Source of the DNA: Candidatus Iainarchaeum sp.
Lineage (GTDB): Archaea; Iainarchaeota; Iainarchaeia; Iainarchaeales; UBA10219
Reading direction: 5' to 3'
DNA length: 64,000 bases
Assembly: GCA_018304425.1 (NCBI GenBank)
Contig: JAGVWE010000007.1
Coordinates: 25,804 to 89,803 of the forward strand
Position 1 is the stretch's first letter; the number at the start of each line of letters is the position of its first letter. A program made the position numbers and the translations under genes. The notes under the pieces are model-generated. The model was not told where the DNA came from. It did not search any database and saw nothing but the letters and a program-made list of their open reading frames with translations. This document shows, in pieces, positions 16,122 through 29,695 of the stretch.

Positions 16122-16514
16122 TCACCAGCCGTCTGTTTTGAGGTTTTTCACGCGGTCGAAATGTTTGCGGTTGTTGGTGACCAAGATGGCCTCATGGCAT
16201 ACTGCGATGGCCGCAATCATGAGGTCCAGTACTTCGAGGCGGTTCCCCTTGCGGATGAATTCTGCGTCGAGTAGGGCGACCTGTTCGGCGGCATCAACTT
16301 CGAAGGGAAGCGGTTGTAGCGAGGCCAGGAATTTCCTCGCAAGGTCGAGGCTGGCAGGCGTGCCATACAGCCGCTCTCCAACCAGCACTTCGTATATGTT
16401 GATGCAGGTAGTGGCGATTTCCTTGTCCTGCTCCGGTAGTTGCCGTAATTTTGCGGTCGCAGCCTCTTTTCCGCGAAGATAGGCGATGATGCAATCGGAG
16501 TCAAGGATTATCAT
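16122..16514 (-). CDS. VapC-type PIN-domain toxin (pair 1)
   Basis: A 130-residue PIN ribonuclease. Acidic residues of the active site are visible in IILDSDCIIAYL, INIYEVLVGERLYG, NRLEVLDLMIAAIA and ILVTNNRKHFDRV. Such toxins cut tRNA or rRNA when not bound by their antitoxin. Its start overlaps the end of the upstream antitoxin gene by 14 bases. It converges with the KaiC-like gene, seven bases away. Confidence 0.9.
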   Translation of the reverse strand: MIILDSDCIIAYLRGKEAATAKLRQLPEQDKEIATTCINIYEVLVGERLYGTPASLDLARKFLASLQPLPFEVDAAEQVALLDAEFIRKGNRLEVLDLMIAAIAVCHEAILVTNNRKHFDRVKNLKTDGW

Positions 16515-16755
16515 GCATTCTCGCCTGTCGTTTCCAGAATGATGCCGTCGAGTCTTTCCTCAGTCGCCTGTACAAGGCCAGCCGCTTTTCGGCTTCCTCA
16601 TCGGTCATCGGGATGCTGCCGAAATACTTCATGAGGTCGGGTTGTTCCTTTTCCGCCAGCCGCTCGAGCAGGTCGCTGAAGCTCTCGCCTTCGTGCTTGG
16701 CCCTGATGAGCTTCTCATAGACCTTGCCCTTGATGGTAAGGGTTTTGAAGACCAT
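16501..16755 (-). CDS. VapB-type antitoxin (pair 1)
   Basis: An 84-residue protein starting MVFKTLTIKGKVYEKL, the pattern of the archaeal DUF217/COG1753 antitoxins, with GESFSDLLERLAEKEQ as the second helix and a C-terminal toxin-binding tail. I chose ATG 16755 because a TATA-like ATTAAATATATG (minus strand) lies just upstream, which rules out the longer frame from 16812. It is encoded immediately upstream of its toxin and probably represses the pair. Confidence 0.8.
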   Translation of the reverse strand: MVFKTLTIKGKVYEKLIRAKHEGESFSDLLERLAEKEQPDLMKYFGSIPMTDEEAEKRLALYRRLRKDSTASFWKRQARMHDNP

Positions 16756-16866
16756 GCTATGTTTAAGGTTAAACATATATTTAATCCTTGCTTCCATCCT
16801 TTTAAGCAACAAACTATTTTTAAGGCAATTGTCGTAATATTGGTGTGTTCGGAGAGTAGATTAATA

Positions 16867-16896
16867 TAGCCATAAAGCAATATAGCTATATGGCTA
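16867..16896 (+). promoter_or_regulatory. Operator-like inverted repeats over the start of VapB (pair 2)
   Basis: TAGCCATA at 16867-16874 is mirrored by TATGGCTA at 16889-16896, and a perfect palindrome TATAGCTATA lies between at 16881-16890. The repeats span the ATG at 16890, the expected site for autorepression by a toxin-antitoxin complex. Confidence 0.65.
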
Positions 16897-17138
16897 CAAC
16901 TACGTTGCGGGTGCAACTGCCGGAGGAAAAAGCCAGAAAGGTGCGGGAGCAAGCCATGAAACGCTTCGGTTATTCGAAAGGGGCCATCAGCAAGGCGCTC
17001 AATGTGGCCTTGGATGAATGGTTGGGGAAGGCGAAACCAGCCAAACCGCCTATCACGGCCAAGGACTTGTTAGGGCGGCTGAGTGGCGTAAAGGAGTCCT
17101 CCGTGGAACTCCAGCACAAGGCTCGTGACTATTGGTAG
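16890..17138 (+). CDS. Antitoxin-like protein (pair 2)
   Basis: An 82-residue basic protein. It starts with a beta strand TTLRVQLPEEKA and helices KVREQAMKRFGYSKGAISKALN, resembling ribbon-helix-helix antitoxins, followed by a tail (TAKDLLGRLSGVKESSVELQ) suited to toxin binding. Its end overlaps the PIN toxin start by seven bases. Inverted repeats over the start suggest autoregulation. Confidence 0.75.
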   Translation: MATTTLRVQLPEEKARKVREQAMKRFGYSKGAISKALNVALDEWLGKAKPAKPPITAKDLLGRLSGVKESSVELQHKARDYW

Positions 17139-17551
17139 GCTGTGCCATGTATTTGCTGGACACCAACATTTTTTTGGAAATCCTCCTCGATGGCGCACGC
17201 GCCACCGAATGCCTGCGCCTGCTCTCCCTTTTGCAGGGCGAACGGCTGTCTGCGGTTGTTTCGAAGTTCGCGGTTTATTCGATTTGCCTGATTCTTTTCA
17301 GGAAAAAACAACCCGATCTGGCCCGGGATTTCCTGGCCTATCTGGATTCCCTTCCAACCCTGCAAATCCATGGGACCTCCCTTGAGGAGGATGCCGAAGC
17401 CTTCGCCAGCGCGGAGAAATTTGGCCTTGACTTTGACGACGGCCTGCAGTTTACGGTTGCCAAGCGCTTGAGCGTGGAAGCCATCGTCTCCTTTGACCGG
17501 GACTTCGACAAGACCCCCTTGAAGCGCCTGGAGCCAAGTCAAATCCTTTGA
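17132..17551 (+). CDS. PIN-domain toxin (pair 2)
   Basis: A 139-residue PIN protein whose frame begins with a GTG at 17132; the ATG at 17147 giving MYLLDTNIFLEILL is the likelier start. The conserved acidic residues are in YLLDTNIFLEILL, AEKFGLDFDDGLQFTVAK and IVSFDRDFDKTPL. It differs from the other two PIN families in this window and pairs with the preceding antitoxin. Unlike the neighbouring toxins it is on the plus strand. Confidence 0.85.
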   Translation: MVGCAMYLLDTNIFLEILLDGARATECLRLLSLLQGERLSAVVSKFAVYSICLILFRKKQPDLARDFLAYLDSLPTLQIHGTSLEEDAEAFASAEKFGLDFDDGLQFTVAKRLSVEAIVSFDRDFDKTPLKRLEPSQIL

Positions 17552-17565: not shown

Positions 17566-17770
17566 TCACTCGGCTTCCGTTTCCTGTCGTCTGACCCGAA
17601 GGAAGATGCCCGCCGCAATCAGGGCCGCGAGCGCCATCGTGAGTTCGTCGTACTCGGGGATGACGTTGAGGGTGTTGCGGCTGCCGAAGGCGCTGGTCGT
17701 GGTTGGACGGGAAAACCGCTCGTTTCCCATATCGTCAGTAAAACATTTGGCGGTGAAATATGACAGTCGA
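17566..17770 (-). pseudogene. C-terminal stump of a surface protein, copy 1
   Basis: On the minus strand, in a frame different from the VapC gene that overlaps it, the sequence encodes YFTAKCFTDDMGNERF, then NTLNVIPEYDELTMALAAL, a membrane segment, RRQETEAE and a stop at 17566. This matches the extreme C-terminus of the full-length surface protein at 22513-26325. No start codon or N-terminal domain belongs to it, so it is a stump lying at the 3' end of vapC copy 1. Confidence 0.85.
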
Positions 17771-18149
17771 ATATTCTGTTGAGCCCTGGTACGCGCTTGA
17801 AATGCCTGGCGTTCCCGGTCAACAGGGTTTCCCGGGCTTGGAGGGCAATGGCCGCAATCATGCAGTCCTGTGGTTCGATGGGTTGGCCGGTTTGCCAGAG
17901 TCCTTGCTGGATTTCGCCTGCCTCGTTTGCGGCTTGGGCATCCAATGGCAGGGCAGGCAGGGAGGAAAAGAGTTCGCGGACGCGTTGCCTTTCTTCTTTT
18001 CCGGCGCGGTGGAGGCTTTGAATGACTTCAAACACGGTGATAGCCGTCGTCAGCAACGGTTCGCCTTTTCGCTTCAACTCCTCCGCCTTGGCGGCCGCAC
18101 CCTTTTCTCCCCTGATAAGGTCAATGACGTAGCTGGTGTCAAGAATCAT
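17619..18149 (-). CDS. VapC-type PIN toxin, paralogue copy 1, with read-through tail
   Basis: Residues 1-130 are a PIN toxin: MILDTSYVIDLIRGEKGA, TTAITVFEVIQSLHRA, QPIEPQDCMIAAIALQA and LLTGNARHFKRVPGL hold the active-site and phosphate-facing residues. The frame then runs on for about 46 residues through the surface-protein stump in another phase, so the natural C-terminus has been replaced. ATG 18149 overlaps the antitoxin stop (ATGA). It is about 85 percent identical to copy 2 at 19948-20523. Confidence 0.85.
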   Translation of the reverse strand: MILDTSYVIDLIRGEKGAAAKAEELKRKGEPLLTTAITVFEVIQSLHRAGKEERQRVRELFSSLPALPLDAQAANEAGEIQQGLWQTGQPIEPQDCMIAAIALQARETLLTGNARHFKRVPGLNRIFDCHISPPNVLLTIWETSGFPVQPRPAPSAAATPSTSSPSTTNSRWRSRP

Positions 18150-18382
18150 GGACGGAAGCCTTCCATGAGGGCGCGACTCCGCGCCAGGCCGGTGGCTCTC
18201 GACGCTTGCACGGCTTCCTCCACCGTTGCCGTGGTCTTCTTGGACAGTATGCCCGCGAATTTCGTCAAATCCGTTTTGTTGGTGAGCCTGCAAATCACTT
18301 GGCTGAAGCTCTCCCGCGCTTTTTTGCTGGAGGCCAGGCGCTTATAGGCGTCCACCGTAATCGAAATCGTTTTCGTTGCCAA
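18146..18382 (-). CDS. VapB-type antitoxin, paralogue copy 1
   Basis: About 78 residues, LATKTISITVDAYKRLAS followed by ESFSQVICRLTNKTDLTKF, an archaeal DUF217-type antitoxin. I prefer the TTG at 18382 because the TATA box at 18413-18420 would be too close to an ATG at 18406, and copy 2 also conserves a TTG at this place. Its stop overlaps the vapC start. Confidence 0.78.
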   Translation of the reverse strand: MATKTISITVDAYKRLASSKKARESFSQVICRLTNKTDLTKFAGILSKKTTATVEEAVQASRATGLARSRALMEGFRP

Positions 18383-18400
18383 TCTCCCACCTACACATAC

Positions 18401-18420
18401 ATACACATACGTGTATTTAA
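18401..18420 (-). promoter_or_regulatory. Promoter and operator of vapBC copy 1
   Basis: ATACAC and GTGTAT form an inverted repeat separated by ATAC at 18401-18416, next to a TATA box (TTAAATAC on the minus strand, 18413-18420). The same arrangement is present at copy 2. Confidence 0.65.
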
Positions 18421-18458
18421 GGCTTTGGCTGGAAAAGTGGTCGCCCTCGTTTATGCCA

Positions 18459-18568
18459 TTAAACGGTTTTCCCGCGTTCCATGCGCCTAATCCATCCGAA
18501 GGCGAGCGCGGCCAGTAGTACGGTCAAGGCCAGCGTGTAGTCCTCGTATTCTGGGTTCACCTCGGTTA
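18459..18568 (-). pseudogene. C-terminal stump of a surface protein, copy 4 type
   Basis: The minus strand encodes LTEVNPEYEDYTLALTVLL, a membrane helix ending FGWIRRMERGKTV and a stop at 18459. The stump begins exactly where the AbiEii-like gene ends, in a different frame. Its tail RRMERGK resembles that of the stump at 20848 (RRRERGK), so these two are closest relatives. Confidence 0.8.
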
Positions 18569-19345
18569 ATGCTTTTTCAGCCCATTTTTTTGAATCCGTT
18601 CTTCAATTTCTTTTTTCACTTGGGGAAAGGAAGGCAGCGGGCCGCCAACCAGCCCACCCAAGTCCCGTTCCCAACTGCCTTTTTTTTCGTCCACTTTGGC
18701 CCAGAAACCGTCTGGCGTGAACCGGAGCCCGGCATGCGCCATTTTCCTGCTTATGAGCCCCGGTTCGGCGGGCACGCCTCTTCGTTTCAGCAGGTGCCAG
18801 AGGTCGTAGACGTCCCTGGCCTTGTTTCTTTCATGGATTGCCCTGATTTTTTCGGCAAGGATTTCTTTTTCGTCCATGGCAAACAGATTGAATGGCCGGA
18901 TCTCCCGATAAATCGGGGCATACGGAAACGTTTGAACGGGCAGCAGCACGCGTTCCCTCAAGCTGATGTTGACGGCAAGGGAGGTTAGGCTTTCCTTGCT
19001 GCCGTCGTAAAGCGGCCCCCTTGCCTGCACGTAAACGTTTGTGCTCCTTTCAAACGCTTCCACGGTTGCCTTCGCCTTTACGTCCAGCAAGCTGAAAAGG
19101 CCGGGTAACCGCGTAAAGAAATTTTTTGGCTTGAAGCCTTTTCCAGCCGTGAAGTCGAGGTCTTCGCTGAAACGGTCCAACTTGTACGCCTTGTATAGGC
19201 AGGTTCCGCCTTTAAAGACGAGCTTGCTCCCGAACTCCCGGTAAATGTTTATCAAGGCCAGGTCCTGCAGGTAATCCAATTCCGTGAGCCGGAGGCTGAG
19301 GCCCTTGAATTTTGCGACGGCCTGCAGTTCTTCACGCTTGAGCAT
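18566..19345 (-). CDS. AbiEii-like nucleotidyltransferase toxin (type IV toxin-antitoxin)
   Basis: A 259-residue protein of the AbiEii/AbiGii family. The nucleotidyltransferase motif LVFKGGTCLYKAYKLDRF followed by SEDLDFT near residue 44 is typical, and ILAEKIRAIHERNKARDVYD near residue 165 is the conserved helix with lysine and aspartate. Such toxins add nucleotides to RNA and give phage resistance by abortive infection. The start overlaps the AbiEi-like antitoxin gene by 14 bases, and its stop overlaps a surface-protein stump. Confidence 0.92.
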   Translation of the reverse strand: MLKREELQAVAKFKGLSLRLTELDYLQDLALINIYREFGSKLVFKGGTCLYKAYKLDRFSEDLDFTAGKGFKPKNFFTRLPGLFSLLDVKAKATVEAFERSTNVYVQARGPLYDGSKESLTSLAVNISLRERVLLPVQTFPYAPIYREIRPFNLFAMDEKEILAEKIRAIHERNKARDVYDLWHLLKRRGVPAEPGLISRKMAHAGLRFTPDGFWAKVDEKKGSWERDLGGLVGGPLPSFPQVKKEIEERIQKNGLKKH

Positions 19346-19919
19346 GCAGCGCCTCCCGCAATTTTTTGGCCCAGCCCCTCGCCTTTTTCGCGTGAAGCAA
19401 AAGCCTGTCCCTGTTGATTTTCCGCTTGTTGTTTTTTATGATGTCCACGGCCTCGGCCAAAGACATTTTCCTGGTCGCCAAGGCGTCCACGATTGCTTTT
19501 TCTTTCTCGGCCAAGAAGATTTCCCGGCCCTGGTAGGTCGTCCGCTGGAAGCCGGTGAAGGCGGTTTCCTTGATTTTGATGAATTCAATCCGGGCGTTCC
19601 CATAGGAAACGATTTTTTTCTTCCTCTTCCGGGTCGTGATTACATGGATGGTGAACGGCAGTTGCTCCGTCAATTTATGGTAGTTTAACGCCGCCCAGCA
19701 CGAGATATAACTTGGCCAGACGATCCATGACGCCACGAGGAATGAATCCGTTTCCAGCGTGTACTTGCCCTTCTCGATTTCGTGGAGGACGCCCGCCTTT
19801 TTCAGCCGGTGTGCGACGAGGTACGCGTAATCAATGCCTTTATGGAGCGTGTCGGCGAGGTCCCTGGCCGTAAAAACCGGGTACGGCTTTAATGCCTCCA
19901 GCTCCTTCTTTTTTATCAT
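19332..19919 (-). CDS. AbiEi-like antitoxin
   Basis: A 195-residue protein with an N-terminal winged helix (FTARDLADTLHKGIDYAYLV, AGVLHEIEKGKYTL) and the AbiEi C-terminal domain with SWIVWPSYISCWAALNYH and FQRTTYQGREIFLAEKEKAIVD split over two conserved stretches. It represses its operon and counteracts the AbiEii-like toxin encoded just downstream. The low GC compared with the flanks suggests acquisition. Confidence 0.9.
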   Translation of the reverse strand: MIKKKELEALKPYPVFTARDLADTLHKGIDYAYLVAHRLKKAGVLHEIEKGKYTLETDSFLVASWIVWPSYISCWAALNYHKLTEQLPFTIHVITTRKRKKKIVSYGNARIEFIKIKETAFTGFQRTTYQGREIFLAEKEKAIVDALATRKMSLAEAVDIIKNNKRKINRDRLLLHAKKARGWAKKLREALHAQA

Positions 19920-19947
19920 TCCACCAACCTTATCAAAACTGATATGA

Positions 19948-20523
19948 TTAGCCGCCCAACAATTTATAAGGCTTTTCGCTGGTGTTGCCGCCTAATCCCT
20001 GCAAACGCCATGGCCGCCAGGATAACGGCCAGCGCCATCGTGAGTTCGTCGTATTCGGGGATGACGTTGAGCGTGTTGTGGCTGCCGAAGGCGCTGGTCG
20101 TGGTTGGACGGGAAAACCGCTCGTTTCCCATATCGTCAGTAAAACATTTGGCGGTGAAATATGACAGTCGAATATTCTCTTGGCGTTCCTGGTCAACAGG
20201 ATTTCACGGGCTTGAAGGGCAATGGCCGCAATCATGCAGTCTTGTGGTTCGATGGGTTGGCCGCTTTGCCAGAGCCCTTGCTGGATTTCGCCTGCCTCAT
20301 TCGCGGCTTGGGCATCCAATGGCAGGGCGGGCAGCGAGGAAAAAAGTTCTTGGACGCGTTGTTTTTCTTCTTTTCGGGCACGGTGCAGGCTTTGAACTAC
20401 TTCGAACACCGTGACGGCCGTCGTCAGCAACGGTTCGCCTTTCTTCTTCAATTCCTCGGCTTTGGTGACCGCACCCTTTTCCCCCCGAATCAGGTCAATG
20501 ACATAGGTGGTGTCAAGAATCAT
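19948..20523 (-). CDS. VapC-type PIN toxin, paralogue copy 2, with internal deletion
   Basis: It matches copy 1 closely from MILDTTYVIDLIRGEKGA to LLTRNAKR, but nine residues equivalent to HFKRVPGLN of copy 1 are missing through a clean 27-base in-frame deletion. That segment contains the conserved NxxHF motif of VapC proteins, so activity is doubtful. The frame continues for about 60 residues through the surface-protein stump in another phase. ATG 20523 overlaps the antitoxin stop. Confidence 0.8.
   Translation of the reverse strand: MILDTTYVIDLIRGEKGAVTKAEELKKKGEPLLTTAVTVFEVVQSLHRARKEEKQRVQELFSSLPALPLDAQAANEAGEIQQGLWQSGQPIEPQDCMIAAIALQAREILLTRNAKRIFDCHISPPNVLLTIWETSGFPVQPRPAPSAATTRSTSSPNTTNSRWRWPLSWRPWRLQGLGGNTSEKPYKLLGG
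19964..20165 (-). pseudogene. C-terminal stump of a surface protein, copy 2
   Basis: In a different frame from vapC copy 2 the minus strand encodes RPTTTSAFGSHNTLNVIPEY, then DELTMALAVILAAMAFAGIR and a basic tail with stop at 19964. Upstream of IPEY it is nearly identical to copy 1, while the membrane segment and tail differ, so the two copies share one history on one side only. Confidence 0.85.
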
Positions 20524-20756
20524 TGTTGGAGGCCTTCCATTAGGGCGCGACTGCGTGCCAGGCCGGCAGCCCTTGACGCTTGCACGGCCTTTTCCATGGT
20601 GGCCGCGGTTTTCTTGGACAAGATGCCCGCGAATTTCGTCAAATCCGTTTTGTTGGTGAGCCTGCAAATGACTTGGCTGAAGCTTTCCCGTTCCATTTTA
20701 CTAGAAGCCAGGCGCTTGTAGGCGTCCACCGTAATCGAAATGGTTTTCGTCGCCAA
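20520..20756 (-). CDS. VapB-type antitoxin, paralogue copy 2
   Basis: About 78 residues, starting ATKTISITVDAYKRLAS and nearly identical to copy 1. The TTG at 20756 corresponds to the start chosen for copy 1; a GTG at 20765 in the same frame is the alternative. Its stop overlaps the ATG of vapC copy 2. With an intact antitoxin and a damaged toxin, this pair could act as an anti-addiction module against copy 1, which is inference. Confidence 0.78.
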   Translation of the reverse strand: MATKTISITVDAYKRLASSKMERESFSQVICRLTNKTDLTKFAGILSKKTAATMEKAVQASRAAGLARSRALMEGLQQ

Positions 20757-20775
20757 AGCTATCACCTACACATAC

Positions 20776-20795
20776 ATACACATACGTGTATTTAA
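20776..20795 (-). promoter_or_regulatory. Promoter and operator of vapBC copy 2
   Basis: The inverted repeat ATACAC-ATAC-GTGTAT at 20776-20791 is followed by the TATA box (TTAAATAC on the minus strand). It is the same as at copy 1, so one antitoxin could control both operons. Confidence 0.65.
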
Positions 20796-20847
20796 GGATT
20801 TGGTTGAAACCGCCTTCTCTGCCCAGTCTGCCCGGTTTGCCCAGGCC

Positions 20848-21093
20848 TCACCGGTCTTTCCCGCGTTCCCTGCGCCGGATGTGCGCGAACGCCATCGCCA
20901 CCAGGGCCACGGCTAGCAGCAGGGTTAGGTCATCGTACTCGGGGATGACGTTGAGGGTGTTGGGGCTGCAGGCGCTCGTCGTGGTGTAGAGGTCGTCGGC
21001 CACCACGCGGATGTAATAGTCGCCGCTGGTGATGTCGCAGTTCCAGGCGTACACGCAGTTGATGTCTTGAGGTCGCAGACGGGTGGAGACCAT
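20848..21093 (-). pseudogene. C-terminal stump of a surface protein, copy 3 (81 codons)
   Basis: The frame MVSTRLRPQDINCVYAWNCD runs into DYYIRVVADDLYTTTSACSP, NTLNVIPEYDDLTLLLAVAL and the tail RRRERGKDR. It aligns along its length with the end of the 1270-residue surface protein (CLYSWTCDVTIGNYYLRVEA and following). Its ATG overlaps the stop of the upstream ATPase gene (TGATG). It could be translated as a small membrane protein, but it lacks a signal peptide and most of the last beta-sandwich domain, so a remnant is more likely. Confidence 0.82.
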
Positions 21094-22469
21094 CAGCCGA
21101 ATGTTTCTTCAAGATCCTTCAAGTCATAGAGGTCGGCGTTTTTTTCGTCGATCTTTTTTTCCTTGAATGATTTCGCGAATAGGCAATACCGTTCCGTTCT
21201 GTGCTCTTTGAACCAGCTTACTTTTTCCGCTTTTTGTTTGAGTTTTCGCAGCAGGCTCTCGGCATCGACTTTTTCTTTCCACTTGCATTCGCAGAAGAGT
21301 GCGCTTTTTTTTGCCTTGCTAAGGCCCACGATGTCTATTTCTTCGCCTTTATCCCACCAGCTGCCGATGAGGTAGTCCTTGAAGGCGGCATTTTTGGACA
21401 GCCGGTCTCGGCACACCTCTTCGAACCCTTTGCCGATGAAGGCGTTCAGTTCGGGCTCTATTTTCTCGTTTAAGAGGTTTTTCTGCTTGCGTTGTTCTAC
21501 GTAATCCATGTTTTCAAACACGAAGCGGAACCAGAAGCGGAAGAAAGGGTCTTTCAGTTTGTAGATGCCTTTCCTCGATTTTTCCTTTCGCTCAGTAATG
21601 GGCACGGCACGCTCGACGAGGTCAAGGTCAATCAATACGCCAAGGTATTTGTTTACGGTGCCTTTTTCCAGGCCCGTGTCGTTGACGATGCGCCCGATGC
21701 CGGTGTTGCCCTTTGCGATGGCGGCCACGATGGAAAAATAGTTTCTCGGCTCGTCCAGTTCCTCCCGCAGCACGAACATCGGGTCCCGGAACAGGAAGGA
21801 CTGCTTTTCCAGGATTTTTTCCCCGATATTGGAAACCAGCGTTTTCGTGTAATCAAATTCAAGCAGGTAGGCAGGGGTGCCACCGAGCACCGCGTAGTAA
21901 CTGATTTGTTTTTTGATGTCCATCGTTTTCGGGAAGAAATGGCGGGCTTCGCTGAAATCAAGGGGGTCAAGCTTCATTTGATGTGTTCGCCTCCCGTAGA
22001 GGGGACTCTTATAGCCGAGGAGTTTTTCCATCATGGAGACGCTGGAGCCGCATAAGACGAAGAGGCAGGGCATGTGTTGGAGTGCCTTATCCCAGTGGTC
22101 TTGCAGAATGGAGGGCAGCGAGGGGTTAGCTTGTACGAAGTAAGGGAACTCGTCCAGGAATACGGCGAACGGTTTTTGCTTCAGTTTTTCGGCGAAGTAG
22201 GAGAAAACGGAGTCGAAGTTGCCAAAGGGCCTTGAATTCAGTTGTTCATCGTTGAAAAACTCGGCGCAGGCCCTGCTGATATGCTCCAATTGCTTGTGTT
22301 CGGATTCCTGCCGGCCCAGCAGGTAAACAGCGGGATGATTTTTTGTGAATTCCCTTAGTAACTCGGTTTTGCCGATTCTACGTCTGCCGTATACTACGGC
22401 TAGCACTGGCTTTTTTGCCGACCAAAGCGTTTCAAGCAACTGTAGTTCCTTCACCCGGTTGTAAAACAT
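21093..22469 (-). CDS. Archaeal ATPase (ATPase_2/DUF234 type)
   Basis: A 458-residue protein. The ATPase part has Walker A VVYGRRRIGKTELL at residue 27, Walker B FAVFLDEFPYF and LFVLCGSSVSMMEK as sensor. A winged helix (GNTGIGRIVNDTGLEKGTVN) follows, then the DUF234 C-terminal domain with an endonuclease-like strand pattern EEIDIVGLSKAKKSALFCEC-KWK. The family is common in archaeal accessory regions but its role is not established. Its stop overlaps surface-protein stump 3. The gene is AT-richer than the neighbouring surface gene. Confidence 0.9.
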   Translation of the reverse strand: MFYNRVKELQLLETLWSAKKPVLAVVYGRRRIGKTELLREFTKNHPAVYLLGRQESEHKQLEHISRACAEFFNDEQLNSRPFGNFDSVFSYFAEKLKQKPFAVFLDEFPYFVQANPSLPSILQDHWDKALQHMPCLFVLCGSSVSMMEKLLGYKSPLYGRRTHQMKLDPLDFSEARHFFPKTMDIKKQISYYAVLGGTPAYLLEFDYTKTLVSNIGEKILEKQSFLFRDPMFVLREELDEPRNYFSIVAAIAKGNTGIGRIVNDTGLEKGTVNKYLGVLIDLDLVERAVPITERKEKSRKGIYKLKDPFFRFWFRFVFENMDYVEQRKQKNLLNEKIEPELNAFIGKGFEEVCRDRLSKNAAFKDYLIGSWWDKGEEIDIVGLSKAKKSALFCECKWKEKVDAESLLRKLKQKAEKVSWFKEHRTERYCLFAKSFKEKKIDEKNADLYDLKDLEETFG

Positions 22470-22512
22470 AGTAAACTCTAAAGTATACTACTTATGAGAA
22501 TACTATTTAAAC

Positions 22513-25500
22513 CTATGGTTTGGCCGCCCGTCGCACGCGCAGGAAGATGCCTGCCGCGATCAGGGCCGCGAGCGCCATCGTGATTTCGTCGTACTCGGGG
22601 ATGACGTTGAGGGTGTTGGGGCTGCAGGCGTTGGTTTTGGTGAACCCGTCGTCGGCTTCGACGCGGAGGTAGTAGTTGCCTATCGTTACGTCGCAGGTCC
22701 AGGAATAGAGGCAGCTGGTGTCATCCGGGTTGCAGGCCGCCGTGGTCTGGCTGATGTTGCCGATGATGAGGTTGGTGTTGTTGGCGCAGGTGCTGGCGTC
22801 CGTGCCGTAATAAATGCTGAAGTTGACGTCGTCGAGGTCGGCATCGTCGGCTGTCCATGTAATGTCGTAGGGGGTTGGAACGGTGCAGCTCTGCCCGCTG
22901 CCCGTGGGCGCCACGCTGCTCACGGCCGGCGCATCGTTGGCGCTGATGAGGACGCTGCCGGACTGCTGCTTGATTTGCTTCTTGTTGAGGACACTGTTCC
23001 AGATGAAGACTGAGTCTAAGTCTATATGTGCAAAACCAAGATTATCTAATCTTTGCCCAAATATGATTTTTTGGTCTTCATCACTCATCGTGGTATTACC
23101 CGAACTGGCCCTAAGAACGCCATTAACATACAATCTTCCGCCAACAGTAGTATTCGCCGTCCCTGCGACATGTATCCAGGTATTTTGAGGGAGTGTATCT
23201 ACTGCAGTCAACAAGTTAGCGGTGCCCGACGCACCATATACTAAAACAATATCCTGAGGGAAAGCATCAGCAGCGGTTCTAAAATCGAAAGGTGCAGGAA
23301 AGTTATTATTCGTTGATCCATTTTTTTCGACCATGGGATTATATACTGCAGATTGTGCTCTTACCCAATATGCTACAGTAAATGCCGTGCTAAGACTAGA
23401 AGTCAAATCTGCAATCTCGACTTTGTCATCTACCCCATCAAATTTCAAGTCAGTGTATTCAGCCGGTGTCATAGGGGTGTTCGTGTCCCATCTCGGGCCG
23501 GAAAGCAGTTCCCCATGCTTGTTGCCAGACGTTGCATCCCAGGCCCGGATGGCGTTGCTGTCGTCTTTGTTGAAGTTCCACGCGCTGACCAGCCCGCTTT
23601 CCGTGCCCATTAGTTGTTTGGGCGTGCTGTCTTGTCCAATGTTCTTGGCTTTGTCGTAGACGTTGACGTCGATGAAGTAGTTTTGGTCTGCGAGGCCAGC
23701 GGGGTTCCAGTCGTAGAAGCATAGCACGTTCTGGTCGAAGAAGTAACGGGGTTCGCTGGCGTAACTGGTTCCGCCGGGCGCACTGCAGTTGGCGTCGTTG
23801 GTGGGGTTGCGGGCGAGTTGGGCGAGGTTGACGTCGGCAGCGAATTTGCCTGACGTGTTGAAGTCGGCCGCGTAGAGGCTCGCGTAGAGGCTTGCATAGA
23901 GTTCGTCTTCTTCGCGGAAGTTGCCACTAGCTGGGAGGGGAGCGTAGGAAGTGTCTCTCACCGTGAACTTGACGAGGATGTTGCCGTCCGTTTTCTGGTA
24001 GTGCGAGCCGCCTTCCGGCCAAAGCAGGTTGGCGTCCGGTCCGTTCGTGGTATGCGTGCCACAGTAGTTGTTGCAGCGGTTTATGTAGCCGCTTTCTTGG
24101 TGGATGAAACAGGTGTTGCCGCCCGAGCATTGCCCGGAAGCAGTGCAGGCCGGGTTGCAGCCCCATTGGTTGATGAAGTCCGTGGGCCAGGCGGACGTGA
24201 TGTTGGCGGTGGTGGCCGCAATGTTGAAGTCGATGTCAGCATAGTAGGTGGCTACGCCTAATGTGCCGGTACTGATATTGCAGGGCGCGAACAGGAGGTT
24301 GAAGTCGTACTCGGTGCCGCCCGTGTAGCTGCCGGCACAGGTGATGTTCGCGGTGTTGTCGGGGGCGCTCGAATAGGTGCGTGAACAGCCGGTGGGTAGC
24401 AGGGGCGCGCTGACGAGGGCAAACGTTTTGTAGGGGATGTCGGGGGAGTCAATTAGGGGGTCGTTGCAGGTGTAACCGACTTGTTGGGGCGCCGGTACGA
24501 GGGGCGTGGCATGGTTGCCGCGTATGGGGGTGAGGAGCGATGTCGCATAGTGGGGCTCGATTTTGAAGCCTAGGTTGCCGCTGACATTGGGCATGACTTT
24601 GAGTCTCACGAGGTATTGGTGGGTGTTGGTGTCCGTGGTTGTCAGGTTGAAGGTGAAGTTGGAGTCGGGACTGCAGGCCATGTTGTTGCCGTCTCCGGCG
24701 CGGCCCACGAGGTCGCTGGGGCAGGTGGCGGGCGCGTTGGCGCCGTTGAGGTCAATGCTCGCGTAGAGGACGGCCGCGTTCCAGTCATCAATCCAGTCCA
24801 TGGGGTACATGCGCCACGCGCCTCCCGAGGTCCCGCCGTCGGCTGAAAGGTTGAGGTCTTCGGCCTGGATGTCGGTTGTTCTGGGATGGTTTGCCCAGCG
24901 GCAGGGTTTGACGGTGATTCTTCCAGCGTACGGGGTGCCGCCGGCCAAAGTAGTAGTGGCGTTGCCGTCGTCTCCAACGTAATTGGTGTCGGTGAGCGTC
25001 CAGTGGGGGTTGCGGAGGCCGGCCGTGTTGCCCGTGGTTCCAAACCAGCCGTTGGGGCTGAGGGGGCTGTCAATGAAGTCAACGATTTCCCAGCGGGGAA
25101 GGTTGAGGTCGATGGGCTCCCACAGTGCCCCCCCGAGTATGGGGTCTGAGAAGCATTTGTTGCCCGCGAAGGCGGTGGAATTGTTTGGTACGTAGCTAAT
25201 GGGTTTGCCTTGTCTTACGCCTGCGTCCACGTTGTGGTCGCCGTACGGCGAATCCCATTTTCCGACGGCGCCCGCCGAATAGCGCAAGCCAAAGTTGTTG
25301 TCGATGCTGCGGTGGATGTTGCTCATGATGTTGTAGTCGATGACGTAATTGGTGTCCAGGATGAAGGCCGTGTCGGGCGTGCAGTAGGGGAGTTCCCCGT
25401 TGGTGTCGATTTCGCCGTTATTGGCGTTTCCGGCGTACACCATGCCTCCCATGCTGGTGTGGCTGACGAGGGAGCGGGTGCCGTTCTCGACTTTGACGCA

Positions 25501-26325
25501 GTTGATGTTGTTGCCGGTCAATTCGAGTCCATGGTAGATGGCGTTCACGTTCCAGTCATCGATGAAGTCCAGGGTGTAGGGTTGGGCACCGCAGTTGCCG
25601 AGGTTGCTCTGGTCGTAAAAACGCACGTCCAGGCGCTGGGGGTGGTTCACGAACCGGCATGGAATGGCGGTAGTCCATTTCCCCGCGCATCCGATGATTC
25701 CCCCGGGGCACATCGGGGGCGGGGTGCCACAGGCTGTGCAAGTATTCGGGTTGGGGCAAATCAGTCGTTCGGCGAGGTAGCTGGTGGTGGGGGTCGTGGA
25801 GGTGCAACCGCATCCTTGTCCGGGGGGAACGCAGGCACCGAACGCGGTCTTGGCGCCGCCGATGCAGGCGCCGCCTCCGAGGTTAGCCGTCGTGTTGACC
25901 GCCCATCGGGGCCCGACTCCGGACTTGTTCTCGTCGTTGATGCATTGCCAGCCGACTTCATAGGCCAAGGTCTTGCTGGGGCCGTTTCCACAACTCCAGA
26001 TTGCGTTGAAGCTGGGACATGTTTCGATGCTGATGTTCTCGTCGTAGCTGGGATCAAGCCCCAGGGCTTCGGTCATTTCGAGTTCGAAGGCCCCGGCCGC
26101 GCGTTGGGTTAAGGGTCCAAGGCCTTGGTCTAGGCCGGGGGCATAGGCGTCGATGGGAGTGCAGGAGTCAACTCCTCCCGCCGTCGTCGCACACGGGGTT
26201 CCGGCGCCTCCCGAGTTCGGGCCGCCCCAAGTCAATTCCATGGCGTGTCCGGTGAGGATGGCGGATAGGGCCAGGGCGAGCGCCACCAGCGTCCATCCGG
26301 TCGGCCATCGGATCTGTTTACCCAT
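22513..26325 (-). CDS. Large cell-surface protein with LamG domain and PEF-CTERM-like tail
   Basis: A 1270-residue secreted protein. A signal peptide is visible at residues about 12-28 (WTLVALALALSAILTGHAM). The body is rich in Asn, Thr, Gly and scattered Cys, as in archaeal surface proteins. Near residues 950-1115 a LamG/concanavalin-like domain appears (LVSAWNFNKDDSN, FDGVDDKVEIADL, WIHVAGTANTTVGGRLYVNG). A final Ig-like domain precedes NTLNVIPEYDE, one membrane helix and RVRRAAKP, resembling archaeosortase PEF-CTERM signals. The DNA of the LamG segment is clearly AT-richer than the rest. Confidence 0.85.
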   Translation of the reverse strand: MGKQIRWPTGWTLVALALALSAILTGHAMELTWGGPNSGGAGTPCATTAGGVDSCTPIDAYAPGLDQGLGPLTQRAAGAFELEMTEALGLDPSYDENISIETCPSFNAIWSCGNGPSKTLAYEVGWQCINDENKSGVGPRWAVNTTANLGGGACIGGAKTAFGACVPPGQGCGCTSTTPTTSYLAERLICPNPNTCTACGTPPPMCPGGIIGCAGKWTTAIPCRFVNHPQRLDVRFYDQSNLGNCGAQPYTLDFIDDWNVNAIYHGLELTGNNINCVKVENGTRSLVSHTSMGGMVYAGNANNGEIDTNGELPYCTPDTAFILDTNYVIDYNIMSNIHRSIDNNFGLRYSAGAVGKWDSPYGDHNVDAGVRQGKPISYVPNNSTAFAGNKCFSDPILGGALWEPIDLNLPRWEIVDFIDSPLSPNGWFGTTGNTAGLRNPHWTLTDTNYVGDDGNATTTLAGGTPYAGRITVKPCRWANHPRTTDIQAEDLNLSADGGTSGGAWRMYPMDWIDDWNAAVLYASIDLNGANAPATCPSDLVGRAGDGNNMACSPDSNFTFNLTTTDTNTHQYLVRLKVMPNVSGNLGFKIEPHYATSLLTPIRGNHATPLVPAPQQVGYTCNDPLIDSPDIPYKTFALVSAPLLPTGCSRTYSSAPDNTANITCAGSYTGGTEYDFNLLFAPCNISTGTLGVATYYADIDFNIAATTANITSAWPTDFINQWGCNPACTASGQCSGGNTCFIHQESGYINRCNNYCGTHTTNGPDANLLWPEGGSHYQKTDGNILVKFTVRDTSYAPLPASGNFREEDELYASLYASLYAADFNTSGKFAADVNLAQLARNPTNDANCSAPGGTSYASEPRYFFDQNVLCFYDWNPAGLADQNYFIDVNVYDKAKNIGQDSTPKQLMGTESGLVSAWNFNKDDSNAIRAWDATSGNKHGELLSGPRWDTNTPMTPAEYTDLKFDGVDDKVEIADLTSSLSTAFTVAYWVRAQSAVYNPMVEKNGSTNNNFPAPFDFRTAADAFPQDIVLVYGASGTANLLTAVDTLPQNTWIHVAGTANTTVGGRLYVNGVLRASSGNTTMSDEDQKIIFGQRLDNLGFAHIDLDSVFIWNSVLNKKQIKQQSGSVLISANDAPAVSSVAPTGSGQSCTVPTPYDITWTADDADLDDVNFSIYYGTDASTCANNTNLIIGNISQTTAACNPDDTSCLYSWTCDVTIGNYYLRVEADDGFTKTNACSPNTLNVIPEYDEITMALAALIAAGIFLRVRRAAKP

Positions 26326-26433: not shown

Positions 26434-26506
26434 GGGCGTGTAGTCTAGTCTGGTAGGATACCAGCTTTGGGAGCTGGCGACCTCGGTTCAAATCCGGGCA
26501 CGCCCA
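26434..26506 (+). tRNA. tRNA-Pro (TGG), intronless
   Basis: Acceptor GGGCGTG pairs with CACGCCC, the anticodon stem is CCAGC/GCTGG with loop TTTGGGA (anticodon TGG), the T loop is TTCAAAT and the discriminator is A. The 3' half from the anticodon loop onward, 26465-26507, is repeated exactly at 29653-29695. Confidence 0.96.
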
Positions 26507-26615
26507 TCCTTTTAAAGCCGCTTTTTTTCTTGGCTGGGCTGGGGGAGCCGCTTCTAGTGCCAAGCCTGCTTTGTCTATCAGGGCAGGGCCTGCACGAAGA
26601 TTATTATGCCTGGTG

Positions 26616-27821
26616 TTAAAACCGGATGGCGGGTTCTTTTTCCGTGAGCCATTCTTGGAGGTTCTTGTTTTCTATTTCGATGTTTTCTTCGGTGCTTTTG
26701 CTTGTCTTTCCGGGGTAGAGGATGGTTGCTTTCAGGGCCTTGTTTTTTTTGCAGAATTCCATCAGGCCTTCCTTTTCCCTTTTTGGCAGGTTTTCGGAGT
26801 AACAAACGTTTATCGGCAACAGGCTCGTTTTTTTCTTTGCGACGAAATCGACTTCCCCGGCGTTTTTCCAGTAATAGGCCTCGAATCCCCGGTGCTTGAG
26901 TTCGATTGCAACTGCTGCCTCGGCAAGCCTGCCCCTGTCTTCGGTGAATGACTTTGAAGCGTATTGCTGCATTCCCAAGTCAAAGGCAAAGACCTTTCTG
27001 GGCTTTGAAAGGGATTCCTTTAGGGAGAACGAAAAGAACGGGACCTGGAAAACCAGGAAGGAGGCTTCCAGGTAACCCAGGAACTGTCTTATCGTGTCGT
27101 ACGACAAGCCAAGGGCGACCCGCATTTTTTTCAGGCTTACTTGTTTTCCGGAGTTCGTCAACAGGTAAAACGCAAGGTTTCGTAAAGCCGCAGGGTCTCT
27201 CACGTCATGCCGCGTAATTATGTCTTTAATCAAGGCGAGTTCGAAATAGGACTCCAACAATTTTTCTTTTTTTTCGGGGTGCAAGGCGACTTCAGGGTAG
27301 CCCCCAATCTTGAGGTAGGCGTTAAGGCCTTTCTTGGTTACGCGCTGAAACTCGCTGAAAGAAAAAGGCAGTACTTGAAAACCAATCCCCCTTCCACCCA
27401 AAGAAGTCGCAAACTCGCTGCTCAAGAGCTTTGCGGAAGAACCCGTGACTATTACCTGGCACTGCCGTGTGTCGACGGCCCTTCGGACCCATTTCTCCCA
27501 TCCCTCGACTAATTGCACTTCATCGAAGACAAGGGTGTCTTTCGCCTTCAAGCCGTCTGCAAAAGCGTCCAGTAAATCGGTGTTCAACGAGCCCACAAGC
27601 TTCGGGTCTTCCAGGTTGACGTACCGTGTCAACGTGTTCTCCGGCATTTTTTTCAGAAGCCTTCGGGCGACAACGGATTTCCCTGAACGCCTGGGGCCAT
27701 ACAAGAAAACGACGTTGCGACTGCCCACGAAGGGCAGTATGTCATCTTCAACGTCTCTTTTGAAGGTAGTCTCTTTGACGGCCCATTTTTCCAGAAGCTC
27801 GCCTAATTCCCTTGAAAGCAT
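26616..27821 (-). CDS. AAA-type ATPase, AAA_14/DUF4143 family (module A)
   Basis: A 401-residue protein. Walker A is VVFLYGPRRSGKSVVARRLL near residue 40, Walker B is LVFDEVQLVEGW, and VIVTGSSAKLLSSE is the sensor region. The C-terminal DUF4143 domain includes LAFYLLTNSGKQVSLKKM and a nuclease-like stretch AYYWKNAGEVDFVAKKK. Genes of this kind are scattered in archaeal and bacterial accessory regions and may act as self-protecting mobile units, but the function is unknown. It lies between tRNA-Pro genes and has a palindromic operator upstream. Confidence 0.9.
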   Translation of the reverse strand: MLSRELGELLEKWAVKETTFKRDVEDDILPFVGSRNVVFLYGPRRSGKSVVARRLLKKMPENTLTRYVNLEDPKLVGSLNTDLLDAFADGLKAKDTLVFDEVQLVEGWEKWVRRAVDTRQCQVIVTGSSAKLLSSEFATSLGGRGIGFQVLPFSFSEFQRVTKKGLNAYLKIGGYPEVALHPEKKEKLLESYFELALIKDIITRHDVRDPAALRNLAFYLLTNSGKQVSLKKMRVALGLSYDTIRQFLGYLEASFLVFQVPFFSFSLKESLSKPRKVFAFDLGMQQYASKSFTEDRGRLAEAAVAIELKHRGFEAYYWKNAGEVDFVAKKKTSLLPINVCYSENLPKREKEGLMEFCKKNKALKATILYPGKTSKSTEENIEIENKNLQEWLTEKEPAIRF

Positions 27822-27840
27822 GAAAAACCGGTGCGCAAAC

Positions 27841-27881
27841 GAATATATAAAGGGTTACGTTACAACGTAACCCTATATAAA
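27841..27881 (-). promoter_or_regulatory. Perfect 22-bp operator flanked by two TATA boxes
   Basis: GGGTTACGTT and AACGTAACCC form an inverted repeat with two bases between (27852-27873). TATA-like sequences flank it on both sides (ATATATAAA at 27843-27851 and TATATAAA at 27874-27881). The proximal box is about 20-25 bases before the ATPase ATG at 27821. This predicts tight regulation by a dimeric DNA-binding protein. Confidence 0.75.
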
Positions 27882-27900
27882 GGCTCAAAAAACGCTGTTG

Positions 27901-28107
27901 GCGGGTTTAAACCCCCAAACAGGATGTAAGCCGGGCCAGGCCTATGCAACGCATAGGCCGTTTCCCCGAAGACTTTGTCTTCGGGGCCTCGTCTCCCAAC
28001 AGGGAGACAAGGTCGCAGGCCTTTTGTAAAAAGGCGTGCGAGGCGAAGCCGAGCCAGTTCCATGCCGTGCATGGAACCTTTTCGCAGGCCTTTTGTAAAA
28101 AGGCCTT
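27901..28107. repeat. Cluster of at least six consecutive hairpins
   Basis: No gene is seen here. Perfect or nearly perfect stems follow one another: 27903-27914 (GGGTTTAAACCC), 27939-27959 (GGCCTATGC/GCATAGGCC), 27964-27986 (CCCCGAAGAC/GTCTTCGGGG), 27991-28008 (GTCTCCC/GGGAGAC), 28019-28035 (GCCTTTT/AAAAGGC), 28057-28077 (GTTCCATGC/GCATGGAAC) and 28087-28105 (GGCCTTTT/AAAAGGCC). The last ends two bases before tRNA-Pro. Confidence 0.88.
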
Positions 28108-28230
28108 GGGCGTGTAGTCTAGTCTGGTAGGATACCAGCTTTGGGAAAGCCTTTTTTGCTTGCGCAAAAAACCCTTGGGAAAAGGGCTTCCAGCGTGCTG
28201 GCGACCTCGGTTCAAATCCGGGCACGCCCA
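28108..28230 (+). tRNA. tRNA-Pro (TGG) with a 50-base intron
   Basis: Exons 28108-28146 and 28197-28230 together match the intronless tRNA-Pro at 26434. The intron, at the canonical anticodon-loop position, contains hairpins of its own: TTTTTTGC/GCAAAAAA around TTGC, and CCCTT/AAGGG. The exact cut can move by one base because either the A at 28146 or the T at 28196 could be position 38. Confidence 0.9.
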
Positions 28231-28269
28231 TCATAGTATAGTTCCAATCAGCTTGTCCTTGTGGGTAGC

Positions 28270-29529
28270 TTACCTTTCAAGGAGCCATTTCCAGGCAGGC
28301 GTCACCCTTGTCTTGCCGATTCGGGTTTCTTGGTCATACGTTATGATGATGCCTTTCCTGCCGCCAAATCGTTGGATGGCTTCCTCTAGGCCCCTGGTTT
28401 CGCGTTTCTTGTTTTCTTCGGTGAGCGTGTGGCACACCTGTATGCAGGCATCCTTGGTTAGGAAGTCGCATTCAAATCCGTTCTTGTAATAGTTTATTTC
28501 AGTGTTGCCACGGCGGAACAATTCCGTGAACACAATGTTTTCCAGTATTCTGCCGGGGTCTTTTTCGGTGTTGTAGTAGTTGATGAAGCCATGGTCGCAG
28601 ACATAGGCCTTTTTCAGGTAGGCCGATTCCTTTTTGAAGGATTTTTGTTTTGCATTGACAAAGAAGCAAAAGTATGCGTCTTCAAGGCATTTCGAGTATT
28701 TCTGTATAACGGAGGTGCTGGATTTGTAGCCACTGCTTTTCGCAAAGTTGTTGAATTTGTTCATTGAGTACTCGGAAGCATATTGCCTCGTGAGGTTCTT
28801 CATGAGCAACCGCATCAGTTCGATGTTCTCTACCTTGAACCGCTCGACGATGTCCTGGAATAGCGTGGTTTTGAAGTATTGGTCGATGAACTCCAGCTTC
28901 TTTTCCAGCACTATTTCCGGGAACCCACTCAGGTGCATGAACTCGTCAAACGCTTTTTTTACGGCTGCTTTGGTTCCATTGAACTCCCAATTCCTGCCCG
29001 GGCGGATGCCCCGTATTCCAAGGAATTCCTTGAATGACAAGGGCATCACTTGAATGGGATAGTCCCGTCCCCTCACGGCAGTGGCGATTTCCTTGCTTAA
29101 AAGCCTCGAATTGGAGCCGGTGACATAAACCCGATAAGCTTCGTCGTTCACGCGCCTGACGAATTTTTCCCAGCCCGCCACATTCTGGATTTCGTCAAAA
29201 AAAAGCAGGGGTCTTTTGTCCGGGTAAAGCTCGCCATAAGCTTCCAGTGCCAGCCCCAGCTGGCTGGCTTTCATTTCCGAAATCCGTTCGTCCTCGAAAT
29301 TAAGGTAGAGAAAATCAACCAAATCCAAACCCTTTTTCAGGTGTTCCTGCATGATCTGGTAAAGCATGTAGGTTTTGCCGGCCCTCCTGGGACCAAGGAT
29401 TACGAAAACCTTGTTGACCTCCTTGAATTCAGGCACTTCGACGTCTCTCTCGAATGCCTTCGGCAGCCCCCTTGAATGAAAACCCGCAATGGCTTCCTTG
29501 ACGGCTTTCTTTATCTCGACATCCAGCAT
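28270..29529 (-). CDS. AAA-type ATPase, AAA_14/DUF4143 family (module B)
   Basis: A 419-residue ATPase with Walker A FVILGPRRAGKTYMLYQIMQ near residue 41, Walker B LLFFDEIQNVAGWEKFV, sensor VYVTGSNSRLLSKEIA and a DUF4143 C-terminal part with INYYKNGFECDFLTKDACIQ. It is a distant relative of module A, not a recent copy. A TATA-like ATTTAAAT at about 29552-29559 lies 25 bases upstream of the ATG. It occupies the whole space between two tRNA-Pro sequences. Confidence 0.9.
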   Translation of the reverse strand: MLDVEIKKAVKEAIAGFHSRGLPKAFERDVEVPEFKEVNKVFVILGPRRAGKTYMLYQIMQEHLKKGLDLVDFLYLNFEDERISEMKASQLGLALEAYGELYPDKRPLLFFDEIQNVAGWEKFVRRVNDEAYRVYVTGSNSRLLSKEIATAVRGRDYPIQVMPLSFKEFLGIRGIRPGRNWEFNGTKAAVKKAFDEFMHLSGFPEIVLEKKLEFIDQYFKTTLFQDIVERFKVENIELMRLLMKNLTRQYASEYSMNKFNNFAKSSGYKSSTSVIQKYSKCLEDAYFCFFVNAKQKSFKKESAYLKKAYVCDHGFINYYNTEKDPGRILENIVFTELFRRGNTEINYYKNGFECDFLTKDACIQVCHTLTEENKKRETRGLEEAIQRFGGRKGIIITYDQETRIGKTRVTPAWKWLLER

Positions 29530-29645: not shown

Positions 29646-29652
29646 TGCCCCA

Positions 29653-29695
29653 CTTTGGGAGCTGGCGACCTCGGTTCAAATCCGGGCACGCCCAT
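29653..29695 (+). pseudogene. 3' half of tRNA-Pro (TGG), att-like
   Basis: These 43 bases equal positions 26465-26507 of the intact tRNA-Pro, from the anticodon loop through the acceptor end and the following base. No matching 5' acceptor strand lies upstream. A fragment that begins at the anticodon loop is the usual trace of integration by tyrosine recombinases that target tRNA 3' halves. Confidence 0.85.

What the first reader, a model, noticed from the sequence alone, without database searches (positions are those of the whole stretch)
17566..22620. Four consecutive cassettes, each a toxin-antitoxin or ATPase gene ending in a surface-protein C-terminal stump
Reading leftward from the full-length surface gene at 22513-26325: ATPase + stump (20848), vapBC copy 2 + stump (19964), AbiE pair + stump (18459), vapBC copy 1 + stump (17566). 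In each case the stump begins at, or overlaps, the stop codon of the cargo gene with no spacer, and encodes the same IPEY-like motif, membrane helix and basic tail. Repetition in one orientation suggests a process that places cargo genes at the 3' end of surface-protein genes, or site-specific or homologous exchange using the conserved 3' end. I know no described system with this layout. Alternative: accidental gene decay in an island.
Basis: partly seen in the sequence, partly recalled or inferred. Interest (0 to 1): 0.88.

Follow-up and report, generated by a model that had tools for sequence, protein, structure and literature searches.

The report
Cargo genes displacing gene 3' ends
In this archaeal genome an ATPase gene and three toxin-antitoxin modules have been added one after another behind a surface-protein gene, each probably by recombination that gave the gene a new 3' end and left an old 3' end behind as a stump; the same scar around the same kinds of genes in other genomes shows that it is a recurrent way for small selfish modules to enter a genome without breaking the host gene.

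Summary
The four cargo+stump units are real and the coordinates are right. Two corrections: the two vapBC units are 86% identical copies sharing one junction (so three independent junctions), and both VapC genes have lost their own ends. The tail occurs nowhere else in the assembly. Homologues of the cargo ATPase (AAA+ with a PD-(D/E)XK-like domain) in other genomes are also followed by a displaced copy of the 3' end of the intact neighbouring gene: dockerin protein, lipid reductase, trpS, DUF4143 ATPase, trpG, amidase. AbiE and vapBC modules show it too. In the phylum 11 of 53 such modules are flanked by direct repeats, against 0 of 43 control genes (p = 0.0009). Gene copy and stump differ mostly at synonymous sites (23.5 versus 6.5 nonsynonymous), so they descend from two functional alleles, not from decay or a target-site duplication. 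Best reading: incoming DNA carrying a homologous 3' end plus cargo, probably end-joined into a circle, integrates by a crossover in the resident 3' end; repetition builds the array. Known parallels: fungal mitochondrial mORFs, Vibrio immunity-gene arrays, single-crossover duplications in E. coli conjugation. New variant of a known kind. Surface genes are not special. No empty site or recombinase was found.

The parts
22513..26325 (-). full-length surface-protein gene (1270 aa, Laminin_G_3 domain, IPEY tail): the gene whose 3' end is the target
21093..22469 (-). cargo 1: ATPase_2 + DUF234 (STAND/ORC-like AAA+ with C-terminal PD-(D/E)XK-like domain; Walker A GRRRIGKT and D...ExK motif intact)
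20848..21089 (-). stump s4: displaced 3' end (last part of an Ig-like domain, IPEY tail), 77% to the full gene over 171 bp, one frameshift near its start
20520..20765 (-). cargo 2: vapB copy 2
20179..20523 (-). cargo 2: vapC copy 2, native 3' end lost and a further 27 nt deleted; frame stays open to 19948
19964..20178 (-). stump s3; first about 145 nt 98% identical to s1 including the junction, remainder different
19332..19919 (-). cargo 3: gene paired with AbiEii (AbiEi-like antitoxin by position, no Pfam hit)
18566..19345 (-). cargo 3: AbiEii nucleotidyltransferase toxin
18459..18565 (-). stump s2 (NPEY tail only)
18146..18406 (-). cargo 4: vapB copy 1
17778..18149 (-). cargo 4: vapC copy 1 (PIN domain), native 3' end lost; frame stays open to 17619
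17566..17777 (-). stump s1; 88% to the full gene over 116 bp, protein tail nearly identical (7 synonymous, 1 nonsynonymous difference over 30 codons)
26434..26508 (+). parallel case: intronless tRNA-Pro(TGG)
26616..27821 (-). parallel case: AAA_14 + DUF4143 ATPase between two tRNA-Pro copies
28108..28232 (+). parallel case: tRNA-Pro(TGG) with a 50-nt intron, exons identical to 26434-26508
28270..29529 (-). parallel case: second AAA_14 + DUF4143 ATPase
29650..29695 (+). parallel case: displaced 3' half of tRNA-Pro

Best explanation
Each unit is the scar of a gene addition anchored in the 3' end of the surface gene. Incoming DNA carried a homologous 3' end followed by a small cargo module (AAA+/nuclease ATPase, vapBC, AbiE). 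Its free end was joined illegitimately, most simply to itself as a small circle, trimming the cargo's end (VapC lost its C-terminus) and the start of the tail copy. A crossover inside the tail then integrated it: the gene stays full length but ends in the incoming 3' end, the cargo follows with its own promoter, and the former 3' end is pushed behind the cargo as a stump. Repetition at the same tail gives gene - ATPase - stump - vapBC - stump - AbiE - stump - vapBC - stump. Once made, a cassette (R part of tail, cargo, L part of tail) can move by tail-tail recombination, which explains why both vapBC copies share one junction. Shown here: the anatomy, the shared junction, the recurrence with unrelated target genes in other genomes, the enrichment over control genes, the synonymous bias. 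Inferred: the circle, the crossover, the order of events, and retention of the modules through their selfish or addictive nature.
For: Five tails at one locus only, one gene intact. s1 and s3 are 98% identical from the cargo junction for about 145 nt, then diverge inside the tail, as a crossover there predicts. The ATPase's closest relative in the phylum (53%, G001) is flanked by a 126-bp, 90% repeat: the 3' end of the upstream dockerin gene, again at the ATPase's stop. G023: 101 bp, 95%, 3' end of a geranylgeranyl reductase gene; G071: 72 bp, 93%. G074: 3' end of a DUF4143 ATPase. G030: 3' end of a gene read here as trpS. Beyond the phylum: trpG in a Methanosarcinales MAG, an amidase in Anaeroplasma. 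AbiE: G026 3' end of the upstream gene, G065 50/50 bp. vapBC: G023 carries a TA array separated by four copies of one repeat. 11/53 modules versus 0/43 controls, p = 0.0009. Gene copy versus stump: 23.5 synonymous, 6.5 nonsynonymous, pS 0.26, pN 0.02. Precedent: in E. coli conjugation 56 of 60 such clones carried a 109-950 bp duplication from a single crossover with an end-trimmed circle (PMC3240628).
Against: No empty site, donor allele or close relative (nearest are same order) was found, so the order of events is inferred. Most modules tested (42 of 53) show no detectable repeat. Outside the phylum the enrichment is weaker (9/66 versus 11/293, p = 0.004), and several of those nine repeats are intergenic or come from ATPase ends; a protein-level version of the test gave only 8/113 versus 4/283. 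One case (own genome C6) is at a gene's 5' end. Tail identity between units (77-88% over about 100 bp) is low for ordinary homologous recombination. The R parts before the two vapBC copies are only 66% identical, so they do not strongly support the cassette model.
Confidence: 0.57

Rival explanations
1. Homing: the ATPase itself drives insertion. Its nuclease domain cuts an allele's 3' end, and repair from the ATPase-bearing allele brings in the ATPase and a donor 3' end, leaving the native end behind, as fungal mitochondrial mORFs do; toxin-antitoxin modules use the same cut or hitchhike.
For: Nuclease motif D...ExK and Walker A nearly invariant in 37 homologues; C-domain model's best fold matches are PD-(D/E)XK enzymes (Card1, McrC, R2 endonuclease, EcoRV), though weak. 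Single-gene units at unrelated sites: bacterial homologues stay 82-88% alike only from about 90 bp upstream to 20 bp past the gene. A second AAA+ family sits serially at tRNA-Pro in the same window. Identical layout in fungal mORFs (PMC3630166).
Against: vapBC and AbiE units show the same scars without any ATPase beside them. No common target sequence was seen. The structural match of the nuclease domain is weak. No activity is known; the family has been listed as likely defence (PMC4158269, arCOG03166; assignment to this ATPase assumed).
Confidence: 0.2
2. Accidental decay: a tandem array of surface-protein genes with toxin-antitoxin and ATPase genes in between lost its gene bodies by deletion, leaving tails.
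For: Surface genes are often tandem; s4 has a frameshift; GC is lower here than around.
Against: No 5' remnant of any lost gene; cargo ends and stump starts meet without spacer in all four units. The same scar occurs beside single genes for a lipid reductase, trpS, trpG and an amidase, where no array is seen.
Confidence: 0.1
3. Transposition with a long, variable target-site duplication.
For: Repeats flank single modules; some are perfect (50/50 bp in G065).
Against: Repeat length varies from 25 to about 200 bp; no transposase in the units; the gene and stump copies differ mainly synonymously, which a neutral copy would not.
Confidence: 0.08
4. The stumps are small functional genes (short membrane proteins) or silent donors for variation of the surface gene.
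For: Open frames of 33-81 aa; s4 has an ATG overlapping the ATPase stop; s1 keeps the protein sequence of the tail.
Against: Partial Ig domain without signal peptide; start points arbitrary; s4 frameshifted; a sorting tail is a poor site for variation; other genomes' stumps are ends of soluble enzymes.
Confidence: 0.03

Closest known systems
Fungal mitochondrial mobile ORFs with C-terminal hybrids (atp6, atp9, cox2, nad3 in Glomus; atp6 in Allomyces; PMC3630166)
   Same: Inserted ORF brings a foreign C-terminal end that completes the host gene; native C-terminal end displaced downstream; sequence differences fit two functional alleles.
   Different: Theirs are LAGLIDADG or GIY-YIG homing endonucleases in organelles; here AAA+/PD-(D/E)XK-like ATPases and toxin-antitoxin pairs in archaea, in a tandem series of four.
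Vibrio cholerae T6SS effector-immunity arrays by homology-facilitated illegitimate recombination (PMC5361080)
   Same: Serial addition at one anchor with older pieces, including gene 3' ends, displaced downstream.
   Different: There the upstream region of the module is the anchor and the effector is replaced; here the host gene is kept whole and cargo is unrelated to it.
Single-crossover integration of end-trimmed circles in E. coli conjugation (PMC3240628)
   Same: Produces a locus with inserted DNA and a 109-950 bp duplicate of the gene end.
   Different: Laboratory observation with plasmids; not serial, not tied to selfish modules.
Elements integrated at tRNA or gene 3' ends by integrases (SSV-type; phage e14 at icd; from general knowledge)
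   Same: Host gene end replaced by an element-borne copy, old end displaced.
   Different: Units here hold one or two genes and no integrase; repeats are imperfect and of variable length.
Integron cassette arrays (general knowledge)
   Same: Serial one-orientation cassettes rich in toxin-antitoxin genes, each followed by a shared sequence.
   Different: Shared sequence is the coding end of a host gene; no integrase among the cassettes, none searched for genome-wide.

Membership tests
Mitochondrial-type mORF (C-terminal-replacing homing element) | full-length host gene, inserted ORF, displaced native C-terminal copy | tested here: met
Mitochondrial-type mORF (C-terminal-replacing homing element) | inserted ORF is a LAGLIDADG or GIY-YIG endonuclease | tested here: not met
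   ATPase_2 + DUF234, VapBC, AbiE
Mitochondrial-type mORF (C-terminal-replacing homing element) | mobility by cleavage of the ORF-less allele | not testable with these tools
   needs an experiment
Integron | IntI integrase and attC sites | not tested
Integrase-borne element at a gene 3' end | integrase gene inside the element | tested here: not met
   every unit contains only ATPase or toxin-antitoxin genes
Integrase-borne element at a gene 3' end | identical att core in both repeats | tested here: inconclusive
   long identical stretches in some cases (about 70 bp in G023) but no common core
Homology-facilitated illegitimate or end-joined single-crossover integration | duplication of the homologous gene end, about 0.1-1 kb | tested here: met
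   25-200 bp; shorter than the 109-950 bp of PMC3240628 in several cases
Homology-facilitated illegitimate or end-joined single-crossover integration | illegitimate junction with short microhomology | tested here: inconclusive
   cargo and stump meet without spacer and VapC is trimmed, but the donor sequence is unknown
Archaeosortase (PEF/PGF-CTERM type) substrate | C-terminal motif, helix, basic tail, and a sortase in the genome | tested here: inconclusive
   motif-helix-basic tail present; one weak PF09721 hit at 26.6 bits; no NCBIfam hit
VapBC and AbiE toxin-antitoxin systems | VAPB_antitox, PIN, AbiEii domains | tested here: met
   toxicity not tested, and both VapC copies have altered ends
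ATPase_2/DUF234 family | both Pfam domains over the curated cut-off | tested here: met

The most novel reading that the evidence does not exclude
AAA+ ATPases fused to PD-(D/E)XK-like domains (ATPase_2/DUF234 and AAA_14/DUF4143) are autonomous single-gene mobile elements of archaea and bacteria that home into the 3' ends of genes and tRNAs, restoring them with a carried 3' end, and toxin-antitoxin modules parasitise the same route to build integrase-free cassette arrays.
Probability: 0.2. Interest if true: 0.87.

Novelty: new variant of a known kind. Interest (0 to 1): 0.64.

Why it matters
It suggests a route by which the smallest selfish modules, often a single gene or a toxin-antitoxin pair without transposase or integrase, enter and stack up in genomes: they travel with a piece of a host gene's end and leave that gene working. 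The scar is easy to recognise, so the route can be surveyed across genomes. It also proposes a way of spreading for two very common ATPase families (ATPase_2/DUF234, AAA_14/DUF4143) whose function is unknown, and warns that small tail-only ORFs next to toxin-antitoxin genes can be scars, not genes.

Tried and rejected
Relatives of the tail or of the surface protein: none in 87 genomes of the phylum apart from a distant full-length gene in G050 and weak hits, none confirmed in genome contigs or viral contigs, so cargo variation upstream of this very tail could not be tabulated; the test was moved to homologues of the cargo. RNA families: only tRNAs in the region. Tandem duplication of the vapBC unit as the sole origin: rejected because vapBC differs by 12% while the junction/stump block differs by 2% and the distal tails are unrelated. 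Target-site duplication: disfavoured by synonymous bias. A protein-level stump scan was less sensitive than the DNA scan. A possible ATTCG(A/G)CTG motif at the VapC and ATPase junctions is absent at the AbiE junction and was not pursued. PDB search: AAA+ part matches 2qen/2fna (STAND/ORC type) and weakly TnsC; taken only as fold class. Literature searches for DUF234 and COG1672 gave nothing relevant.
Full report
WHAT IS THERE. Reading leftward on the minus strand from the full-length surface gene 22513-26325: ATPase 21093-22469, stump s4 20848; vapBC copy 2, stump s3 19964; AbiE pair, stump s2 18459; vapBC copy 1, stump s1 17566. The five tails align in DNA and protein. In the whole assembly (1.48 Mb, 92.6% complete) this tail occurs in these five places only, and no paralogue of the surface protein is found outside them. 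The cargo is a Pfam ATPase_2 + DUF234 protein, an AbiEii toxin with a partner gene, and two VapB/PIN pairs.

CORRECTIONS. The two vapBC units form one 809-bp block at 86% identity, including the junction to the stump. Within it the junction and first part of the stump (145 nt) differ by 2%, the vapBC part by 12% (p = 6e-5), and the last part of the tail is unrelated: s1 ends like the full gene, s3 does not. So the block is a mosaic with a switch inside the tail. Against the last 146 nt of vapC alone (7%) the contrast is not significant (p = 0.09). Both VapC frames have lost their own stop and read into the stump out of frame; copy 2 has lost 27 nt more. The s4 stump has a one-base frameshift near its start relative to the gene (read). 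Stumps are therefore fragments, not genes.

TEST IN RELATIVES. The window's nearest genomes are only of the same order, and the tail itself is practically absent from them. I therefore asked what lies behind homologues of the cargo. The closest homologue of the ATPase (G001, 53% identical) is followed at its stop codon by the last residues of a dockerin domain, and the gene upstream is an intact dockerin protein with that same end: a 126-bp direct repeat at 90%. In G023 the ATPase sits behind a geranylgeranyl reductase-like gene whose last 30-odd codons are repeated behind the ATPase (101 bp, 95%). In G030 the repeat is the end of a gene I read as trpS, in G074 the end of a DUF4143 ATPase, in G071 a 72-bp sequence behind the upstream gene. 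Outside the phylum, an Anaeroplasma homologue has the end of an amidase gene and a Methanosarcinales homologue the end of a gene I read as trpG, in opposite orientation. AbiE pairs show it at the 3' end of the upstream gene in G026, with a perfect 50-bp repeat in G065, and, in the window's own genome on contig C6, at the 5' end of a glycosyltransferase-like gene. In G023 another contig carries an array of toxin-antitoxin modules separated by four copies of one 70-100 bp repeat lying behind a membrane-protein gene: the same layout as the window with a different repeat. A congener, G032, has two of those modules side by side with a different separator.

STATISTICS. With equal flanks, 11 of 53 cargo modules in the phylum (ATPase 4/14, AbiE 4/28, VapC 3/11) are flanked by direct repeats against 0 of 43 other genes in the same loci, p = 0.0009. 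For 80 ATPase loci from genome contigs it is 9/66 against 11/293, p = 0.004, and several of these nine are intergenic repeats or old ATPase ends. A protein-level version gave 8/113 against 4/283, p = 0.006. All three tests are reported; the first is the cleanest but small.

TWO ALLELES. Over seven coding repeat pairs the gene copy and the stump differ by 23.5 synonymous and 6.5 nonsynonymous changes (pS 0.26, pN 0.02, p = 5e-12; first version). A stump copied from its gene at insertion and then left without function would collect mostly nonsynonymous changes. The two ends therefore most likely come from two alleles that had diverged while both were functional. The segments were chosen as the ungapped aligned parts, which favours conserved stretches, but this is unlikely to turn a neutral pattern into this one.

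MECHANISM. The simplest scheme is integration anchored in the gene end: incoming DNA has the end of the homologous gene followed by cargo; its other end is joined illegitimately; a crossover in the anchor completes integration. In E. coli conjugation, DNA of this kind gave in 56 of 60 analysed clones a duplication of part of the homologous locus (109-950 bp in 14 sequenced clones), explained by a single crossover with a circle that had lost part of the end (PMC3240628). That outcome has the anatomy seen here: gene, cargo, truncated extra end. The trimmed VapC end is what end joining would give. The shared junction of the two vapBC units shows that a finished cassette was copied or moved again together with its tail. 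Shown: anatomy, recurrence, two alleles. Inferred: circle, crossover, order, reason for retention. I give this 0.57.

RIVALS. Homing by the ATPase (0.2): its C-terminal domain carries a nearly invariant D...ExK motif in 37 homologues, the AlphaFold models are confident (pLDDT 95 and 93), the AAA+ part matches 2qen and 2fna (Z 23 and 21, rmsd 2.9 and 3.4 over 296 and 289 residues), and the best, though individually weak, fold matches of the C-domain are PD-(D/E)XK enzymes. Homologues in different bacteria are alike only from about 90 bp before to 20 bp after the gene, so the gene moves alone. But vapBC and AbiE units show the same scar. Decay of a surface-gene array (0.1), transposition with target-site duplication (0.08) and functional stumps (0.03) are disfavoured for the reasons given in the rival list.

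COMPARISON. Fungal mitochondrial mORFs have the same layout: a foreign C-terminal end completes the gene, an endonuclease ORF follows, the native end is displaced (PMC3630166). Serial displacement by homology-facilitated illegitimate recombination was proposed for Vibrio cholerae immunity-gene arrays (PMC5361080). The present case differs in organism, cargo and in keeping the host gene whole through four additions. I found no paper describing it for ATPase_2/DUF234 or archaeal toxin-antitoxin genes, but only an open-access library was searched.

LIMITS. No empty site, no donor, no close relative, no recombinase search, MAG assemblies without read support.

Noticed in passing
window 26434-29695: Serial insertion at a tRNA-Pro(TGG) gene: intronless tRNA, AAA_14/DUF4143 ATPase, intron-containing tRNA with identical exons (75/75), second such ATPase, then a 3' half of the tRNA. 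An intronless exact copy of an intron-bearing tRNA is itself unusual.
   Followed up: partly
L221 (G023 contig C9), 4754-8863: Array of toxin-antitoxin modules (AbrB-like/PIN, MazF-like, three vapBC) separated by four copies of a 70-100 bp repeat with a GCACA...TGTGC hairpin.
   Followed up: partly
L224 (own genome C6:60001-78000), 7851-10024: AbiE pair inserted at the 5' end of a glycosyltransferase-like gene with a 29-bp repeat: the same scar at a 5' end.
   Followed up: partly
L081 (G042 contig C52) and L095 (KSB1): ATPase genes preceded by short copies of ATPase 3' ends, suggesting insertion behind, or loss of, an earlier ATPase copy.
   Followed up: no
L073 (G027 contig C15), 3398-3640: ATPase followed by what looks like the C-terminal end of a repetitive surface protein (TQALDVNGDVNVSS...GELVIST*), whose full-length source is not on the contig.
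   Followed up: no
window 16122-17551: Two further PIN-domain modules in convergent orientation next to the array (16122-16812 minus, 16890-17551 plus), without IPEY stumps.
   Followed up: no
G000:C1:451927-452664 (L006, L022): Single weak exosortase/archaeosortase-like protein among glycosyltransferase-like genes; PF09721 proteins occur in 65 of 87 genomes of the phylum.
   Followed up: partly
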